IMG/VR virus record: IMGVR_UViG_3300034378_000186
Coordinates: 1 to 64,000 of that record
DNA length: 64,000 bases
Source of the DNA: a virus
Reading direction: 5' to 3' (one strand)
Shown here: positions 8,807 through 61,636 of the stretch, piece after piece
Numbering within the stretch: position 1 is the first letter of the stretch
How the letters are laid out: each line of letters opens with the position of its first letter
Notes under the pieces: model-generated
What the model was told of the DNA's origin: nothing
The model's input: the letters and a program-made list of their open reading frames with translations, nothing else
Databases searched by the model: none
Translations under genes and position numbers: made by a program

Positions 8807-9003
8807 TATTTTTGATTATATTTGGAGTAGTTTTATTGGTGGGATTAATTATAAGGGGTTTAAATAGGTTCAGAAAAGATAATCCTGGTTACTTCTGCCC
8901 ATTTTATAAAAATGATGGATGCTTACATGTTGATGGGTATTTATGTGATATAAATGATTGTTCAATTTTAAAAAAATACAGTGATGTTAAAAATTTATTA
9001 TGA
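8800..9003 (+). CDS. Single-pass membrane protein with Cys-rich tail
   Basis: 67 aa. N-terminal membrane helix (VIFLIIFGVVLLVGLIIRG) then a soluble tail with five Cys (CPFYKNDGC...CDINDC), suggesting a metal site or disulfides. The start ATG overlaps the previous stop. The gene's last codons abut the TTTAT left flank (8994-8998) of the next mobile element. Confidence 0.6.
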   Translation: MVIFLIIFGVVLLVGLIIRGLNRFRKDNPGYFCPFYKNDGCLHVDGYLCDINDCSILKKYSDVKNLL

Positions 9004-9322
9004 ACGGAGCTATGTTAGAATATAAAGCAAAGTGGAACGGAGTTAATATTCTAAAGATCGGAAGGTTTGAACCCAGCTCGAAGCAATGTTCAAACTGTGG
9101 ATACCTCAATAAAAAATTAACACTAAAAGACCGTAAATGGACTTGTCCTGAATGCGGTTTTGTTCTTAATCGTGATGTTAATGCTTCCATAAATATTAAA
9201 AACTTTGCTTTAAACAACCATTTGTGTACGGAACATACACTTAAAAATCATGGTACGTTGTCTTCGTTGGAAGGAGCTTTGACCCATGAAGCCCACCGAT
9301 CTTTAGTCGGTGGGTAGTTCAC
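8999..9322 (+). mobile_element. 324-bp internally deleted IS200/IS605-type element
   Basis: Flanked on the left by TTTAT (8994-8998). It begins TATGAACGGAGC, close to the ATGACGGAGCG left end of the full element at 34379, then jumps directly into the 3' third of tnpB. It finishes with the right-end hairpin (CCCACCG/CGGTGGG) and GTAGTTCAC at 9322. The first two thirds of tnpB are deleted. The retained part covers the zinc finger, RuvC-III and the omega-RNA region, so it could still give an omega-RNA whose guide starts at 9323 (GATATCAATGG...). Confidence 0.7.
9000..9317 (+). pseudogene. tnpB: TnpB C-terminal fragment
   Basis: An open frame of 105 codons. It carries LEYKAKWNG, the zinc finger CSNCGY...CPECG, RuvC-III NRDVNASINI and then reads through the omega-RNA/right end, as the full-length copy at 34488 also does. 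RuvC-I and RuvC-II are absent, so it cannot be a nuclease. The alternative is a retained zinc-finger protein. Confidence 0.75.
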
Positions 9323-9345
9323 GATATCAATGGTAAATTGGAATA

Positions 9346-16037: not shown

Positions 16038-16370
16038 ATGGGAAAGATAACTAAACAAAAACAGAAGGAATTTCTTAGGACTAAGCTTGGTTCAAATCCA
16101 AAATGGGCTCTGAGGGGTTTAATGGTAATTTATAATTACCAGACTGAAGATGAGAAAGTATCTGAAACCATTCGTGAATATAATAATGTAGGTTTTACAG
16201 GGGTGGATAGAAATATTCTCACCAGTTTTGCAAACCAATATATGCGCAGGAGATTTCTGTCTGAGAAACAAATGGAACTTCTGTTTAAAAAAATGCCAAA
16301 ATACTGGAAGCAACTTTTGGCTGTATCAGATGAAAATATTCTTAATTCTCAAATCTTAAATACACAGTGA
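16038..16370 (+). CDS. Hypothetical basic protein
   Basis: 110 aa, helical and basic, with an internal AN-x-YMRRRFLSEKQMELL stretch. Its TGA stop (16368-16370) is formed by the GTGAAC end of a solo mobile-element hairpin, so the original C-terminus may have been different. The hairpin beyond the stop can act as its terminator. Confidence 0.6.
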   Translation: MGKITKQKQKEFLRTKLGSNPKWALRGLMVIYNYQTEDEKVSETIREYNNVGFTGVDRNILTSFANQYMRRRFLSEKQMELLFKKMPKYWKQLLAVSDENILNSQILNTQ

Positions 16371-16415
16371 ACTACCCACCCACATTCTGATGGGTGGGTT
16401 TTTACGCTCTATTTT
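16367..16415 (-). mobile_element. 49-bp solo IS200/IS605-type end (left-end/right-end hybrid hairpin)
   Basis: Read on the - strand: TTTAT flank (16416-16420), AAAATAGAGCGTAAAA (left-end-like, compare GGAGCGTAAAACC at 34383), hairpin ACCCACCCA/TGGGTGGGT, then TAGTTCAC (right-end-like). Nothing lies between the two ends. The same plan is seen at 57212-57262. It is probably a deletion product of a full element. Confidence 0.65.
16373..16403 (+). terminator. Terminator formed by the solo element hairpin
   Basis: ACCCACCCA pairs with TGGGTGGGT and is followed by TTTTT on the + strand, directly after the stop of the 16038 gene. Confidence 0.6.
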
Positions 16416-16529
16416 ATAAAACTACTACTCTGAGGGAAGGAAGATTCGTTGGAATGCTTTACAAACCCCATGTTTTTAATTAATATCCATTTTATGTGTT
16501 TTAGGCTTGGTCAATTTGATCGGGGTTTT
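16416..16529. other. Non-coding stretch with no recognised content
   Basis: About 110 bp between the solo element and the next promoter. No ORF, clear hairpin, tRNA-like fold or repeat was seen. Part of a roughly 445-bp gene-free region (16371-16815) otherwise filled by mobile-element ends and a promoter. Confidence 0.5.
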
Positions 16530-23147: not shown

Positions 23148-24656
23148 ATGGAACCAAATTTAGATATTTATAATTTCAACAATGTTGAAACCGGTGCTTT
23201 CCAACAGGATAAAGTATTTGATCTCATGAAGGCTATGAATGCAGGAGATCAAACCGGTCGTGATCTTGATGGTGTTGACACTGCTGGTGCAGCACTGAAA
23301 ACTGAATCCCTTGATCCAACACTGAGGGTATTAACTAACCGTGATAAGCATATCGTTTTCTGGAAGTCAATTCCGAAACAAAAGGCTTACAATACCGTTG
23401 AAGAATACAACCAATTGGTTGATTATGGCCTGGAGACAGGAATCTTCAATGGTGAAGGTGAAACTCCTCAGTTTACAGATTCTATCTACCGTAGGGAATC
23501 TGTACTGATTAAGTATATGGGAATCTCTGGTGAGGTTACTCATCCATATACATTGGTCAACCTTGGTTCAGGTGTTGGGAATGCCCTAGCAAAAGAGGTT
23601 CAGAATAAGACACAATTCCTGCTTCGTGCCATAAATCAGTCACTTCCTACTGGAGACAGTGAAATGGTTGATAATGAATTTGACGGAGTTTTCAAACAAC
23701 ATTACGTTGGTGTAACCGGTGGTCTGGCTGTAAACTGGGATGGTTATTTTAATGACAGTACTGTAATCGATAACAGGGGTGAAGCTCTGAACGATGATCA
23801 GGTTGAGGATGGTACTCAGGCTGTTGTTAATGACAACTTTGGTATGGTCAGTAAAATTCTTGCGAATCCTATTGTTTTCAATGACTATGTGAAGAGATTC
23901 CACGAAAGCAAGCGTGTGAATGTTGGTCAGCCTGGAGCAGTTCAGGGAGCAACAATGGGTCAATCAGTCAACAAAATTACCACTCAGTTTGGTGATGTTG
24001 ATATTATGAATGACATTTTCTTTGATCGTGCAAGATTGATCGGTAAAGTATATAATGCCGGTGCAACTGGCGGAGGAAAAGCTCCTGCAGCTATTACTCC
24101 AGATGGATCTACTCCTGTAGCTGTTGTCACTGACGCTGCCACTAAATTTACTGATGGTGCAGGTGATTACTTCTATGCTGTTACATCCAAAAACAGATAT
24201 GGAGAATCTGCAATGACTATCCTGGACACTACAGCAATTTCTGTATCGGCTACTCAGTCTGTAAATTTGAAATTCACAATTACAAACAATTCTTTCCCTG
24301 CAGAAAGTTTTGTTATCTACAGAACTCAGAAAGATGCTGCTGATTATACAACTGCCCTATTCTATCCAATTCTCACAGTAAGTATTGCCCAACATACTTC
24401 AGGTTATGATGGTGGTGCTGCTGGACTGGTAAGGGACAGAAACAGATTTTTACCAAATACAACCAGTGCTTTGATCTTTGATCCAACTGAGGAAATCCTT
24501 TGTTTCAAGCAATTGGCCCCAATGATGAGAATGGATCTGGCTCGTACCAGTCCTTCCTTCAGGTTTATGGTCCTTTGCTATGGTACTCCATTACTTGGAA
24601 TACCTAAACGGGTTTCAAGGATCGTCAACATTGGTAGAACGATAACTACTTCTTAA
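23148..24656 (+). CDS. Major capsid protein, with inserted fibronectin/Ig-like domain
   Basis: 502 aa. Position, size, and a codon pattern richer in GC than its neighbours (as expected for the most expressed gene) identify it. N-terminal arm with MNAGDQTGRDLDG, core with the FQAG-type shell segments, and a roughly 100-residue insert (about 305-425: AAITPDGSTPVAVV...DYFYAVTSKNRYGES...FVIYRTQKD) reading as a surface-exposed beta-sandwich domain. Followed by a strong terminator. HK97-type fold inferred. Confidence 0.78.
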   Translation: MEPNLDIYNFNNVETGAFQQDKVFDLMKAMNAGDQTGRDLDGVDTAGAALKTESLDPTLRVLTNRDKHIVFWKSIPKQKAYNTVEEYNQLVDYGLETGIFNGEGETPQFTDSIYRRESVLIKYMGISGEVTHPYTLVNLGSGVGNALAKEVQNKTQFLLRAINQSLPTGDSEMVDNEFDGVFKQHYVGVTGGLAVNWDGYFNDSTVIDNRGEALNDDQVEDGTQAVVNDNFGMVSKILANPIVFNDYVKRFHESKRVNVGQPGAVQGATMGQSVNKITTQFGDVDIMNDIFFDRARLIGKVYNAGATGGGKAPAAITPDGSTPVAVVTDAATKFTDGAGDYFYAVTSKNRYGESAMTILDTTAISVSATQSVNLKFTITNNSFPAESFVIYRTQKDAADYTTALFYPILTVSIAQHTSGYDGGAAGLVRDRNRFLPNTTSALIFDPTEEILCFKQLAPMMRMDLARTSPSFRFMVLCYGTPLLGIPKRVSRIVNIGRTITTS

Positions 24657-34287: not shown

Positions 34288-34382
34288 AACCTCCTAAAAA
34301 AGGAAAAATAGTAACAGGGGTAACGTTATTTAATATTTTACTTATTGCTGCTGTAACGGTGATAGGAGGTTTATTTATATGA
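34284..34382 (+). CDS. Tiny single-pass membrane protein
   Basis: 32 aa (MKPPKKGKIVTGVTLF...VIGGLFI), overlapping the lipoprotein gene by 4 nt. Basic N-terminus and one membrane helix. The TGA stop lies in the first bases of the mobile element (TTTAT|ATGA), so the insertion may have truncated the gene. Candidate i-spanin remnant or holin-like peptide. Confidence 0.5.
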   Translation: MKPPKKGKIVTGVTLFNILLIAAVTVIGGLFI

Positions 34383-34487
34383 CGGAGCGTAAAACCAATT
34401 CATCGCTTTAGCGTGGATTGGATGTAAGCGACTTACTCTTCACTTACATTTTGTAATTTTGTAAAAGTTTAGACTATTTAATAATAT

Positions 34488-36395
34488 ATGCTTAAAGGAT
34501 TAAAATATCGCATTTACCCAACCAACTCACAAAAAGAGTTAATAGCCAAACATATTGGTAGTAGTCGTTTTGTGTATAACCTTGCATTAGAAACAAAAAA
34601 TACAGCATATTTAGGTTCTAAACATAACTTTTCTCCTTTTGATTTAATTAAGCAACTATCTGAACTTAAAAAAGAATATCCTTGGCTTAAAGAGGTTAAT
34701 AGCCAATCTTTACAGCAAGCTATCCAAAATATGGATATTGCTTTTAAGAAATTCTTTAAAGGGGCTGGTTTTCCTAAATTCAAGTCAAAGCATAGAGGAA
34801 AACAATCTTTTTCTATTCCACAAAATGTAATAGTAGAAAATGAAAAGTTAATTATTCCTAAATTCAAGGAAGGAATCGAAATTGTTTTGCACAGACCTAT
34901 TGAAGGAACAATCAAAAGTGCAACTATTAGTATTACTTCAACAGGGAAATACTTTGTTTCAATATTAGTTGAAACCAGTAAAGAGAAACCAAGTAAAGCA
35001 CCTATTAAAGAAAAAACAACTATTGGTATTAAGTTAGGCGTATTCCCAAATATGTTTTCTACAAATAATTTTTCCGTTAGCCCATTGGCTAATAGACGAT
35101 GCGGAACTTCCAGTTCCTCTACTGGCAGCAGTGCAACTCTCCCAAACAGCAATGATTTCTCCTGTTTCCTTGCTTCTTTGAATGACTTTCTTCTTGGAAG
35201 CCGCCCAAGCAGCTTGATGCAGTTTGGATATATGCTCGGCACTACGTTTTGCCCCCTTATTGGCTTTAGATATTTTTCTTCTTGTTTCAGCAGAGTGCGT
35301 TTTTCCAAAAAAGCCATTAAATTCTCCAACTCTGGTTTTAGCGCGGTTAGAAATAGCAGCACATTCGGATTGAGTTCTTTTTCTCCCCAAAGTGCTTCTA
35401 TGGGGTACGGTGCAAATATTATAGCCGAATTTCTTTTCGTTACTCCTAAAGAAGGAAATCCAAAAGCATTCTCTATCTTGAAGGCTTGCGTAATCCTCGA
35501 CAACTTCGATGATTTGGAAATCAAAAGCATCCCATCCGTACTTAGCAATAGCCTTGTAAAATGGAAAGTTGCTTTGCAAGTTCCTTTTTCTTCTGTGTTC
35601 AGCAAATCTAAGTTTGATATTGACGGATTGCCCAATGTAGCATTTACCGTTGATTGTGTTTCTGAAGATGTAAACTCCAGATACAGATGGGATGTCTTTG
35701 AACCTTGTTTGCATATTGCAAAGATACAAAAAGAAAACGATTTAAAACCTAATTGTTCAAAAAAAGACTTAGGAATAAAATCGTTTTTAGTTACTTCTGA
35801 TGGAGAAGAAATTGATAATCCCAAATACTTACGAAAAGCACAGAGTAGATTAAAATATGTACAACGTAAATATTCAAATAACAAAGGCAAGCGCACTAAG
35901 AAAAAACTTGCTAAGCTACACGAAAAAGTAGCTAACCAAAGAAAAGATTTTCTACATAAAACCTCAACTAAACTGATTCGTGAGAACCAAACGATAGCCA
36001 TTGAGGATTTAGCGGTTGCTAACATGGTCAAGAACCATAATCTTGCACAGGCAATTAGTGATGTTAGTTGGTCAACCTTTGTTTCAATGTTGGAATACAA
36101 AGCTGATTGGTATGGTAAAAATATCTTACAAATAGGACGTTTTGCACCATCATCAAAGACTTGTTCTTGCTGTGGGTATATCAATAAAGAACTAACACTA
36201 AAAGACCGTGAATGGACTTGTCCTAAGTGTAATTCTGTACTTGACCGTGATGTGAATGCTGCTGTTAACATTAAATCATTTGCATTAAAAAATATCTTAT
36301 CTGGAACGGATAGGAAAACTCGGAACGAACTGCCTCGGTTACGAGGAGTGTTGACTTCCGAAGCCCAACCCATCGGCTCTGCCGTGGGTGGGTAG
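34488..36395 (+). pseudogene. tnpB: TnpB gene interrupted at RuvC-I by a GIY-YIG gene
   Basis: The 635-codon frame holds a TnpB from MLKGLKYRIYPT to TTIGI (35030), then a 735-bp insert (35031-35765), then DLGIKSF (35766 on), RuvC-II IAIEDLAV, zinc finger CSCCGY...CPKC, and RuvC-III DRDVNAAVNI. The insert is an exact multiple of 3 and free of + strand stops, so translation would yield a TnpB with 245 foreign residues in the middle of RuvC-I. Activity is unlikely. TTAGG occurs at both junctions (35034 and 35769). The uninterrupted ancestor would read IGIDLGIKSF. Confidence 0.85.
35034..35714 (-). CDS. GIY-YIG homing endonuclease with NUMOD motifs, antisense inside tnpB
   Basis: 226 aa from the ATG at 35714 (MQTRFKD); the upstream ATG at 35729 lies in the promoter. 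GIY-YIG core: GVYIF...CYIGQS, then RFAEHRR and the catalytic Glu in DRECFWI. A NUMOD3-like DNA-binding stretch follows (GFFGKTHSAETRRKIS), then a NUMOD1-like C-terminus (ETGEIIAVWESCTAASR...). TATCTTTG (35719-35726) lies 4 nt before the start. The stop codon lies on the left insertion junction, so the cassette is just promoter plus ORF. It cuts DNA to promote its own spread (family knowledge). Confidence 0.85.
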   Translation of the reverse strand: MQTRFKDIPSVSGVYIFRNTINGKCYIGQSVNIKLRFAEHRRKRNLQSNFPFYKAIAKYGWDAFDFQIIEVVEDYASLQDRECFWISFFRSNEKKFGYNICTVPHRSTLGRKRTQSECAAISNRAKTRVGEFNGFFGKTHSAETRRKISKANKGAKRSAEHISKLHQAAWAASKKKVIQRSKETGEIIAVWESCTAASRGTGSSASSISQWANGKIICRKHIWEYA

Positions 36396-36400
36396 TTCAC
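36301..36400 (+). ncRNA. Omega-RNA 3' scaffold of the 34379 element
   Basis: Overlaps the tnpB 3' end. Contains hairpin CCTCGG/CGAGG, GTTGACTTCCGAAGCCC, and the terminal stem ending GGGTAGTTCAC. Guide predicted from 36401 (TGAACGTAGGGTTTC...). Confidence 0.6.
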
Positions 36401-36868: not shown

Positions 36869-37564
36869 ATGGATCTAACTAAATACAAAAATGTTCCAAG
36901 GGAATATCTAAAAGGAGATTCTAGGACTTGTCAGATCATAGATAATGGTCATGGAGGCATGAAAGATTATAAAAGATATGATTCTCCTTTAGCTTATTTA
37001 ACTCCTGAAATATATGGTAAAAAGGCAAATCATTATACCCATATATTTTTCGAGGGGACATGGAATAGGATTGTAGCTCTGGAAATTGCAAAAGTCTTAT
37101 ATGATATGAAATTGAATTATAAGATTATTGTTCCAGAGGAAGAAGATGTTTATTTATCAGAAAGATGCAGGAGGGCAAATGAATTTGCAAGTCAACATCT
37201 GAATCTTAAAACATTCTTTCATTCTATTCATGGTAATGCTTTTGGTTTAGAATCTGTAAAAGGTATTGAAGTTTACACTTCTATTGGTACCACAAAATCG
37301 GATGAAATTGCTACTATTTTCTATGAAAAATATAATGGTTATATTGGTTGGAATATGAGATCTGATTGGTCTGATGGTGATGCAGATAAGGAAGCAAAAT
37401 TTACTGTACTTACTCAAACCAATATGCCTGCTATTTTAAGTGAACTTGGTTTTTATACTAATCCTGATGAATGTTTGGAAATGTTACAAACCAAAAATAT
37501 TAAATTGATTGCAGAAACTATCGGTAAGGCACATAAGGAGCTTGAGGATAATAAAATATTGTGA
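36869..37564 (+). CDS. N-acetylmuramoyl-L-alanine amidase (endolysin)
   Basis: 231 aa, Amidase_3 fold. Zinc ligands His28 (DNGHGG), Glu62 (FFEGTWN) and His121 (SIHGNA), catalytic Glu192 (LSELGFYTN) are all present. It cleaves the amide between MurNAc and the peptide stem. No signal peptide and no separate cell-wall-binding domain, so release depends on a holin. A virion-associated role cannot be excluded because tail genes follow. Confidence 0.85.
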   Translation: MDLTKYKNVPREYLKGDSRTCQIIDNGHGGMKDYKRYDSPLAYLTPEIYGKKANHYTHIFFEGTWNRIVALEIAKVLYDMKLNYKIIVPEEEDVYLSERCRRANEFASQHLNLKTFFHSIHGNAFGLESVKGIEVYTSIGTTKSDEIATIFYEKYNGYIGWNMRSDWSDGDADKEAKFTVLTQTNMPAILSELGFYTNPDECLEMLQTKNIKLIAETIGKAHKELEDNKIL

Positions 37565-56825: not shown

Positions 56826-57225
56826 TAAATGTTCTAAATGTGGAAATAAAAGGGTAATTGTTAATAAGAAATATTATTTGTGTGATGAATGTAATTACTT
56901 TAGACTCCATGGGGAAACGAAATATGATTCATTTCGTAGAAAACAGAGGGAACAGAATAAGAAGAGGAAGCATAAGAAAACCGGGGAATGGGAATTGTTC
57001 ATGGAAATATGGGCAGAAAGAGAACATAAATGCCATAATTGTGGGATAAGAATTTTTGTACCAAAACCAATAAATTTTATGCATAAGAAAAGTAAAGGGG
57101 CTTCTCCAAGTTTAAGACTGAAAAAAAGTAATATAGAAATTGTTTGTAGGGATTGTCATTATGCGTATGATTTTCAGGGGATGGATAAGTATAACGAAAG
57201 AAAAGATTTATATGACGGAGCGTAA
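56809..57225 (+). CDS. HNH-like zinc protein
   Basis: 138 aa. CSKCGN...CDECN zinc ribbon, a basic linker, then CHNCGIR...NFMHKKSKGASPSLRLKKSNIEIVCRDCHYAYDF. The order (CxxC, His-rich strand, Asn, CxxCH) matches small HNH nucleases such as recombination-type phage proteins. The TAA stop lies in the left end of a solo mobile element (GGAGCGTAA), so the C-terminus may have been altered. Confidence 0.55.
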   Translation: MEKVIDKCSKCGNKRVIVNKKYYLCDECNYFRLHGETKYDSFRRKQREQNKKRKHKKTGEWELFMEIWAEREHKCHNCGIRIFVPKPINFMHKKSKGASPSLRLKKSNIEIVCRDCHYAYDFQGMDKYNERKDLYDGA

Positions 57226-57262
57226 AACCAATTCATCGCTTTAGCGTGGGTGGGTAATTCAC
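57212..57262 (+). mobile_element. 51-bp solo IS200/IS605-type end (hybrid hairpin)
   Basis: TTTAT flank (57207-57211), then 38 bp identical to the left end of the 34379 element, then GTGGGTAATTCAC as at right ends. Internal sequence is absent. The left part supplies the stop codon of the HNH-like gene. Confidence 0.7.
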
Positions 57263-57269
57263 ATAGATA

Positions 57270-59917: not shown

Positions 59918-59960
59918 ATAAACTACCCATCGGCTAAAGACCGAATGGGTTTCCTTGCCG
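59918..59960 (-). mobile_element. Solo end of the second IS family
   Basis: Read on the - strand: GGAAACCC (as in the left end at 59289), then 34 nt identical to the right end at 58053 (hairpin and TAGTTTAT). Placed precisely between the exonuclease stop and the terminase start. Confidence 0.65.
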
Positions 59961-59968
59961 AAAATACT

Positions 59969-61636
59969 ATGAATCAGGACGAATCAACTATAGCATTAAC
60001 AAGAAAAGAATTGAGTAATATCCTGGAATATACTTATAATTTAATTGATTTTTTACCTGATGAAGCTTTAAGTGAATTATTAGAAGGGGATGATAAGAAT
60101 GTTGATAATTTGGTAGATGATATAATGAAAGCAATTCATGAGGTATTCCATTATAATAATCATACTATCAGGAATTTTGGAGGGTTGGAACATTTTGAAA
60201 AAAGTTTTGATGATGGATTAAAAATACTTTCTTATAATTATTTTAAAACTACAATGCTACCTAATTTTGAGCAGGGATGGAGAAATCTTGAATGGGGGAA
60301 TTTAATTCAATTATTCCCTTGGGCTGCATTTTTAGCTGCTCGTGGTCATGGTAAATCATTTGAGTTTTGTTTTGCAGCTCCATTATGGAGAATGTGGAGA
60401 TATAGAAGGCCTGGATTTTTACAGAAGGATACGATTGATAATAAGAATTCAAAAGAAACTGTAATAATTACAAATGAATCAAAACTGGCAAGAAAACACA
60501 TGGAAAAAGTTAATGAGGAAATCAGAATGAATGATTTGCTTTCCAGCGTTATGATACCAGATAAAATGACAGATCTTGGAAAAGATAAGATAATAAGTAG
60601 ATCTGGATCATCTTTAGAATTCAGAACGTATCAGGGATTTATAAGGGGTCTTCATGTTGGTTGTGTATTTGTGGATGACTTTTTAGATGAAAGCTGTTTA
60701 TATTCTGAAGATCAGAGATTAAAATTTCATGAGATATTTTATGGGGCAATAAAATCAATTGTGGAACCATACGGATATTTGATTGTTTCTGGAACACCAT
60801 TTCATGAAGAAGATTTATATGCAAAACTGAAAACAGATCCAATATTTAAGGTTTTTGAATATCCTGCTATTATGCCTGATGGAACTTTATTGGCTCCGGA
60901 TAGATTCAATTACAAATTATTAATGGATCTGAAAAAATCTTTAGGTTCAATTGTATTTACAAGGGAATATTTGGTTAAGCCTGTTAGTGATAGTTCTTCA
61001 TTGTTTCCATGGGAATTTCTTAATAAATCTTTTATTGGAATGGAAAATATCTCCCTGGTAGATAATATCGAATCTTTTCCTATTAAAATGAAAAGGGTGG
61101 TGATGGGGTGTGACTTTGCCATTTCTGGTAAAATAGGGGCTGATTACTCAGTTTTTTCAGTGTGGGGTATAGATAATGATAATAATTACTATTTATTGCA
61201 CGTATGGAGAAAACAGGGGGCTTCACATAGGGAACAGGTTGATGTTATAGTAAGATTAAATCAAATGTTTAAATGCAATAAGATTAAAGCTGAAAATAAT
61301 GGATTTCAAAGGATTATTGCAGAACTGGTAAAAGAGAGAGGGGTTAGAAATATTGAACCTTTTGAAACTACAGCAAAAGTAAAGAAAAATTCATACGAGG
61401 GATTACCTTCTTTGTCAGCCATGTTTGAAAGAGGAGAAATAAAGATACCATATAAAGACGGAAAAACCAGGGAGACAGCTTTATGGTTATGTGGGGAATT
61501 TAATTCGATAACGTTTTTAGAAGATACAGGTAAATTAGAAAGTGCAGGAGGGACAGATGATGGAGCAATGTCTACCTTTTTTGCAATAACAGAACTAAGG
61601 GAGAAAAAGTCCGGTTTTCGGGTTCATCATATTTAA
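59969..61636 (+). CDS. Terminase large subunit
   Basis: 555 aa from ATG 59969 (MNQDEST); the earlier ATG at 59945 lies in the solo mobile-element end. Walker A AARGHGKS (about 123-130), Walker B GCVFVDDFLDE (231-241), motif III LIVSGTPFHEED, and a RuvC-like nuclease (MGCDFAISGKIGADYSVFSV with Asp382, then KAENNGFQ). It pumps DNA into the prohead and cuts concatemers. Located next to replication genes rather than to the portal. Confidence 0.88.
   Translation: MNQDESTIALTRKELSNILEYTYNLIDFLPDEALSELLEGDDKNVDNLVDDIMKAIHEVFHYNNHTIRNFGGLEHFEKSFDDGLKILSYNYFKTTMLPNFEQGWRNLEWGNLIQLFPWAAFLAARGHGKSFEFCFAAPLWRMWRYRRPGFLQKDTIDNKNSKETVIITNESKLARKHMEKVNEEIRMNDLLSSVMIPDKMTDLGKDKIISRSGSSLEFRTYQGFIRGLHVGCVFVDDFLDESCLYSEDQRLKFHEIFYGAIKSIVEPYGYLIVSGTPFHEEDLYAKLKTDPIFKVFEYPAIMPDGTLLAPDRFNYKLLMDLKKSLGSIVFTREYLVKPVSDSSSLFPWEFLNKSFIGMENISLVDNIESFPIKMKRVVMGCDFAISGKIGADYSVFSVWGIDNDNNYYLLHVWRKQGASHREQVDVIVRLNQMFKCNKIKAENNGFQRIIAELVKERGVRNIEPFETTAKVKKNSYEGLPSLSAMFERGEIKIPYKDGKTRETALWLCGEFNSITFLEDTGKLESAGGTDDGAMSTFFAITELREKKSGFRVHHI

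What the first reader, a model, noticed from the sequence alone, without database searches (positions are those of the whole stretch)
34488..36395. tnpB split at its RuvC-I aspartate codon by an antisense GIY-YIG gene, with the frame kept open
TTIGI ends at 35030 and DLGIKSF resumes at 35766. The 735-bp insert is a multiple of 3 and has no + strand stop, while the - strand carries a complete GIY-YIG nuclease (681 bp). It leaves too little non-coding sequence for an ordinary group I intron. TTAGG appears at both junctions. Together with the first copy, two different nuclease families have picked catalytic-motif codons of the same gene family.
Basis: partly seen in the sequence, partly recalled or inferred. 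Interest (0 to 1): 0.78.

Follow-up and report, generated by a model that had tools for sequence, protein, structure and literature searches.

The report
Selfish nuclease gene inside a TnpB
In a bacterial virus, a small gene for a DNA-cutting enzyme of the homing-endonuclease kind has jumped, back to front, into the active-site codons of another mobile gene (tnpB, a relative of the Cas12 gene scissors), so one selfish gene sits inside and disables another; the way of inserting is known, the victim seems new.

Summary
tnpB 34488-36395 carries a 735-bp insert (35031-35765) exactly between Ile181 and the RuvC-I Asp codon. Relatives 75-84% identical have an uninterrupted site, and none of 209 distinct tnpBs holds the insert. 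The insert is a complete GIY-YIG + NUMOD3 homing-endonuclease gene (226 aa) on the opposite strand with a 51-nt leader carrying a Bacteroidota-type TAnnTTTG promoter. Rfam finds no intron, and the ends do not fit group I or II splicing. I read it as an intron-less homing endonuclease gene nested in a transposon nuclease gene, which it inactivates. Cleavage and homing are inferred: no second occupied site was found. The leader holds a near-copy of the target site, resembling I-TevI's operator. The kept-open frame is real and unusual (0 of 82 GIY-YIG relatives; P about 0.002 with composition-matched codons) but not explained. Unexpectedly, this TnpB clade avoids stops in one antisense frame, and the insert keeps that open too. 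A second tnpB in the same phage is split at its RuvC-II Glu codon by a different nuclease gene. A sister phage (capsid 66% identical) has neither tnpB nor GIY-YIG gene.

The parts
34374..34378 (+). TTTAT next to the left end of the element; probable target-adjacent motif
   Evidence: TTTAT(A) precedes the conserved left end GGAGCGTAAAACC in most relatives aligned and at several other element ends in this phage
34379..36400 (+). tnpB-only element of the IS200/IS605 type, left end to right end (GGGTAGTTCAC)
   Evidence: homology to relatives begins and ends here; right-end hairpin / omega-RNA region folds with z -5.0
34488..35030 (+). tnpB, first half (residues 1-181, up to TTIGI)
   Evidence: PF12323; 81-86% identical to most intact close relatives
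35766..36395 (+). tnpB, second half: RuvC-I Asp, RuvC-II Glu, zinc finger, RuvC-III Asp all kept
   Evidence: PF01385 and PF07282; 79-84% identical to intact relatives, no frame damage
35031..35765 (.). 735-bp insert absent from relatives
   Evidence: empty site aligned without gap in close relatives; continuous match across the site in 209 distinct tnpBs; GC 39% against 31.5% for the phage
35034..35714 (-). GIY-YIG + NUMOD3 homing-endonuclease gene, 226 aa; conserved GIY-YIG residues kept
   Evidence: model pLDDT 89, catalytic domain matches I-TevI 1mk0/1ln0 at E 1.8e-6
35719..35726 (-). TATCTTTG, Bacteroidota -7 type promoter element (TAnnTTTG), 4 nt before the ATG
   Evidence: same spacing at the nuclease gene 2266 and at TnpB 59186; total count in the window is not above chance
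35734..35787 (.). inverted repeat across the right junction: leader TTAGGtttTAAATCGTTTT (- strand) against target TTAGGaatAAAATCGTTTT (+ strand); possible operator
   Evidence: 24-nt arms, 79%; z about -3.6; P 0.006 against shuffled leaders; best ungapped match of this strand of the leader to tnpB lies 3 bp from the junction
35034..35038 (+). left TTAGG; its complement supplies the nuclease's stop codon TAA
   Evidence: read directly
35769..35773 (+). right TTAGG of the tnpB target (GACTTAGG holds CTTAG, the CNNNG motif cut by I-TevI)
   Evidence: read directly; CNNNG rule of I-TevI from PMC2988022
34514..36400 (-). 628-codon antisense open frame running through tnpB and insert
   Evidence: stop depletion in this frame is a clade property

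Best explanation
An intron-less (free-standing) GIY-YIG homing endonuclease gene with its own promoter has inserted, in antisense orientation, into the RuvC-I Asp codon region of a tnpB-only element carried by a Bacteroidota-type tailed phage. It is a selfish gene nested in a selfish gene. It breaks the TnpB reading with 245 foreign residues (shown), which should abolish the guided nuclease (inferred), and it would spread by cutting uninterrupted tnpB alleles at or near GA[C/T]TTAGG and being copied in by recombination across the tnpB flanks (inferred). Its leader carries a near-copy of the target without the CNNNG motif, which would let the protein repress itself as I-TevI does (inferred). 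The first entry probably used short TTAGG homology (inferred).
For: Clean 735-bp interruption with uninterrupted sites in relatives. Complete nuclease gene with conserved residues, confident model and I-TevI-like catalytic domain. No intron: no Rfam hit at the gathering threshold, only a chance-level riboswitch at E<=5; 54 nt of non-coding sequence; the insert that restores Asp starts AAGTTA and ends in A, which fits neither group I (final G) nor group II (GUGYG...AY) ends. The insert is a gene plus a 51-nt leader with TAnnTTTG. Higher GC than the phage and codon use unlike it: recent arrival. tnpB halves are undamaged and no more diverged than intact relatives: recent interruption. Leader-to-target similarity located at the junction. 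A second tnpB in the same phage is broken at its RuvC-II Glu codon by another nuclease gene, as expected if conserved motif DNA is the target. Sister phage G403 (L377, 78,996 bp, capsid 66% identical) has no tnpB and no GIY-YIG gene.
Against: No second tnpB with this insert was found, so mobility to this site is unproven; the searches reach only part of sequence space. T4 free-standing nucleases mostly sit between genes, not inside them (PMC2988022). The open frame is not predicted by simple selfish insertion. The leader/target similarity has P about 0.006 only, and the CNNNG match at the junction could be chance.
Confidence: 0.72

Rival explanations
1. Chance insertion of a nuclease gene by illegitimate recombination into a dispensable gene; no homing to this site, and the catalytic codon is a coincidence.
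For: Only one occupied allele known; TTAGG microhomology at the ends; tnpB is dispensable so any insertion is tolerated.
Against: Two nuclease genes in one phage sit next to catalytic codons of tnpB; the leader's target-like sequence maps to the junction; the insert holds little beyond gene and leader.
Confidence: 0.2
2. A group I (or other) intron with an antisense endonuclease gene, spliced from tnpB RNA.
For: The protein's closest named family is 'group I intron endonuclease' TIGR01453.
Against: No Rfam intron hit; only 54 nt outside the gene; the 3' end needed to restore Asp is A, not G.
Confidence: 0.02
3. The open frame is selected: a translated TnpB-insert fusion (RuvC-I Asp displaced, Lys in its place) keeps omega-RNA binding and acts as a nuclease-dead, RNA-guided binder, with the GIY-YIG gene on the other strand.
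For: Frame open and in phase against the odds; TnpB parts of the fusion model with confidence, insert unstructured (residues 186-428 pLDDT < 50), strand 178-183 formed by IGIKL; right-end RNA region intact.
Against: 245 unstructured residues in the RuvC core; no relatives with the insert; the antisense sequence is dictated by the nuclease; the model proves nothing about folding.
Confidence: 0.04
4. Assembly chimera in a metagenomic contig.
For: IMG/VR record from a metagenome; reads are not available here.
Against: Both tnpB halves continue the same gene at adjacent codons and at similar divergence; a chimera would have to close the gap to the base.
Confidence: 0.02

Closest known systems
Aeh1 mobE insertion in nrdA and T4 mobA insertion in gene 60 (PMC2988022)
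   Different: those are HNH genes in essential genes; mobE leaves two polypeptides that reassemble into an active enzyme. Here a GIY-YIG gene lies antisense in a dispensable transposon nuclease gene, and the host frame stays open
T4 Seg endonucleases, especially SegD (GIY-YIG, antisense to neighbours)
   Same: free-standing GIY-YIG genes; segD also opposes the surrounding genes
   Different: Seg genes lie between genes and cut at a distance; this one lies inside its presumed target gene
I-TevI (T4 td intron)
   Same: catalytic domain fold and a beads-on-a-string DNA-binding half; a homing-site-like operator upstream of its gene without the CNNNG motif
   Different: I-TevI lies in a self-splicing intron, so its host gene survives; the operator role here is only inferred from sequence
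IStrons (group I intron + IS element, PMC4227781)
   Same: two kinds of mobile element combined, sometimes with a tnpB-family gene
   Different: no ribozyme here; the nuclease gene is inside the tnpB coding sequence and destroys it

Membership tests
free-standing homing endonuclease (Seg/Mob type) | complete GIY-YIG nuclease with catalytic residues and DNA-binding modules | tested here: met
free-standing homing endonuclease (Seg/Mob type) | not carried by an intron or intein | tested here: met
   54 nt outside the gene; ends do not fit group I or II; antisense, so no intein
free-standing homing endonuclease (Seg/Mob type) | empty cognate alleles exist | tested here: met
free-standing homing endonuclease (Seg/Mob type) | recurs at the same site in independent alleles (mobility) | tested here: inconclusive
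   none found, but the scans reach mainly close relatives
free-standing homing endonuclease (Seg/Mob type) | cuts the cognate allele | not testable with these tools
   needs protein and DNA
free-standing homing endonuclease (Seg/Mob type) | usual T4 position between genes, cutting in a neighbour (typical, not strictly defining) | tested here: not met
   lies inside a coding sequence; exceptions mobE and mobA are known
group I intron | ribozyme core and final G at the 3' end | tested here: not met
   insert ends in A
IS200/IS605-type tnpB element | conserved left and right ends, omega-RNA region, DED residues, zinc finger | tested here: met
IS200/IS605-type tnpB element | contiguous RuvC domain (active guided nuclease) | tested here: not met
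   interrupted before the RuvC-I Asp
IStron | group I intron ribozyme joined to the IS | tested here: not met
TldR-like nuclease-dead TnpB | RuvC-inactive but folded, RNA-binding protein | not testable with these tools
   only a model with an unstructured insert

The most novel reading that the evidence does not exclude
Both long open frames are selected, not accidental: this TnpB clade uses or tolerates an antisense reading frame, and only inserts that keep the sense and antisense frames open persist. The interrupted copy would then be a three-layer locus: a translated nuclease-dead TnpB fusion, an antisense frame, and an active GIY-YIG gene that homes on tnpB active-site codons.
Probability: 0.06. 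Interest if true: 0.85.

Novelty: new variant of a known kind. Interest (0 to 1): 0.5.

Why it matters
TnpB is the ancestor-type RNA-guided nuclease that helps transposons persist. If homing endonucleases use tnpB active-site codons as landing sites, then guided nucleases of mobile elements have their own hyperparasites, which would switch them off while keeping the ends and omega-RNA. It also gives a ready natural target (many uninterrupted tnpB alleles differing by GAC/GAT) for testing homing specificity in Bacteroidota phages.

Tried and rejected
Group I or group II intron: rejected (end sequences). Ribosome bypassing as in T4 gene 60: considered, rejected as implausible over 735 nt; not tested. 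Restoration of tnpB by recombination between the TTAGG repeats: would give IKLG, not IDLG, so Asp would not return. Other tnpB copies with the insert: none in 269 tnpB loci; the only interrupted one (L033) holds an IS3-type transposase; L040 and L022 are broken or truncated copies without a nuclease gene. Close relatives of the nuclease by protein pattern or DNA: none; known relatives share at most about 45% identity over part of the protein. None of the 80 GIY-YIG loci lies inside a tnpB. Relatives of the first-copy nuclease and of the window's endolysin: none in viral contigs. Papers joining TnpB, homing endonuclease and GIY-YIG: one gene-editing review only.

Full report
WHAT IS THERE. The window is bases 1-64000 of an 80,792-bp virus record. 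The record codes for a major head protein (23148-24656), a large terminase subunit (59945-61636) and an endolysin (36869-37564). Related tnpB elements are found in Bacteroidota genomes and in many viral contigs. At 34379-36400 lies a tnpB-only element of the IS200/IS605 type. Its left end follows TTTAT and its right end is GGGTAGTTCAC, both shared with relatives; the right-end RNA region folds strongly (z -5.0). Its tnpB is one open frame of 635 codons (34488-36395), but residues 182-426 do not belong to TnpB.

THE INSERT. In close relatives the DNA runs straight through the site: ATTGGTATT|GACTTAGGAATAAAATCG in the window's joined flanks against ATTGGTATT|GATTTAGGCATTAAAGAT in L318 and similar in others. 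A continuous match across this site was seen at 276 places in 262 loci, 209 of them distinct; none had the insert. The insert is 735 bp, 39% GC against 31.5% for the phage. On its - strand it holds a complete gene of 226 aa (35034-35714): GIY-YIG domain, NUMOD3, and a further C-terminal module. The conserved GIY-YIG positions are kept. The AlphaFold model is confident (pLDDT 89) and its catalytic domain matches I-TevI. The remaining 54 nt are a 51-nt leader and 3 nt. The leader has TATCTTTG four bases before the ATG, a TAnnTTTG promoter element of the Bacteroidota type (family knowledge). The same element and spacing occur in the window only before two other mobile nuclease genes, 2266 and 59186, though the total count is not above chance.

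NO INTRON. Rfam gives nothing at gathering thresholds for the whole window, and at E<=5 only a chance-level riboswitch match on the 34.3-36.8 kb stretch. Removal that restores IGIDLG would need an intron starting AAGTTA and ending in A, which fits neither group I nor group II.

THE JUNCTIONS. TTAGG lies three bases inside the left end and three bases outside the right end. The left one gives the nuclease's stop codon (CCTAA on the - strand). The leader on the - strand carries TTAGGTTTTAAATCGTTTT, close to the target's TTAGGAATAAAATCGTTTT. It is the best ungapped match of that strand of the leader to tnpB and lies 3 bp from the junction (P 0.006 for the 60 nt around the site, 0.05 for the whole of tnpB). 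It forms an inverted repeat with the target. The target has CTTAG, a CNNNG motif as cut by I-TevI; the leader has ATTAG and the left junction GTTAG. This is how the I-TevI operator differs from its homing site (PMC2988022). I offer it as a testable inference, not a result.

THE OPEN FRAME. In-register antisense stops arise from TTA, CTA (Leu) and TCA (Ser). The nuclease gene has 5 Leu and 23 Ser and none of these codons. Under the phage's codon use P is 1.5e-5. Under GC3-matched GIY-YIG genes it is 1.6e-3, and 6e-3 for the next band. Of 82 relatives of at least 150 codons none is fully open; the longest is 154 codons, at 61% GC. A modelled fusion keeps the TnpB parts and leaves residues 186-428 without confident structure, so an active nuclease is not expected.

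AN UNEXPECTED SECOND FRAME. The whole tnpB region is also open in one antisense frame, 628 codons from 36400 to 34514, through the insert. In this TnpB clade (about 64% identity and up) stops in that wobble-aligned frame are depleted against synonymous shuffles: window tnpB 1 observed, 9 expected; L006 and L015 0, about 8 expected. In 17 representatives below 80% nucleotide identity the three stop-making triplets at codon phase 3|12 are at 0.23, 0.34 and 0.60 of expectation, while at phase 23|1 they are at 0.92-1.27. Most other TnpBs and the phage's own genes show no depletion. The insert is open in the same frame (0 stops, 2.9 expected, P 0.0095). I have no explanation.

CONTEXT. The same phage has a second tnpB (43-2246) split next to its RuvC-II Glu codon by a 349-aa nuclease gene, and a further nuclease gene (2266-2850) between that tnpB and its right end. 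Other copies are deleted or reduced to their ends. A sister phage (G403/L377, 78,996 bp, capsid 66% identical) has neither a TnpB zinc-finger domain nor a GIY-YIG domain, so both are accessory arrivals. The tnpB halves have no damage and are no more diverged than intact relatives are from each other: the interruption is recent.

HOW IT PROBABLY WORKS. Shown: an antisense, intron-less nuclease gene with its own leader lies in the RuvC-I codons of an otherwise intact tnpB element. Inferred: TnpB is inactive; the protein cuts uninterrupted tnpB alleles at or near GA[C/T]TTAGG; repair from the interrupted copy spreads the gene; the leader mediates self-repression. Not shown: any second occupied allele, cutting, or transfer. 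Known parallels are mobE in Aeh1 nrdA and mobA in T4 gene 60. I found no report of a homing endonuclease gene in tnpB, within the limits of an open-access library. Verdict: real, a new variant of a known kind.

Noticed in passing
34514-36400 (- strand) and the TnpB clade L006, L009-L016, L037, L038, L297-L326: A Bacteroidota TnpB clade avoids stop codons in one wobble-aligned antisense frame (0-4 seen, 7-11 expected in most close members), specific to that phase and absent from most other TnpBs; cause unknown.
   Followed up: partly
1-2960: Another tnpB element carries two nuclease genes: a 349-aa gene with cysteine-motif repeats and a PD-(D/E)XK-like end, next to the RuvC-II Glu codon, and an endonuclease VII/HNH-like gene (2266-2850) between tnpB and the right end.
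   Followed up: partly
9000-9330: An internally deleted copy joins the left-end tip (TTTATTATGAACGGAGC) to the last third of tnpB with zinc finger, omega-RNA region and right end.
   Followed up: no
57211-57265, 16367-16420, 72040-72260 (L121): Miniature elements with left and right ends and no tnpB; the left-end 39 bp at 57211 are identical to those of the 34379 element.
   Followed up: partly
79594-80790 of the record (L121 16095-17291): The record ends in a type I restriction-modification methylase subunit (HsdM-like), unusual beside the phage genes; phage cargo, host junction or mis-join.
   Followed up: no
L033 1170-2475: A TnpB gene in a high-GC viral contig is interrupted by an IS3-type transposase pair close to the RuvC-I position.
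   Followed up: partly
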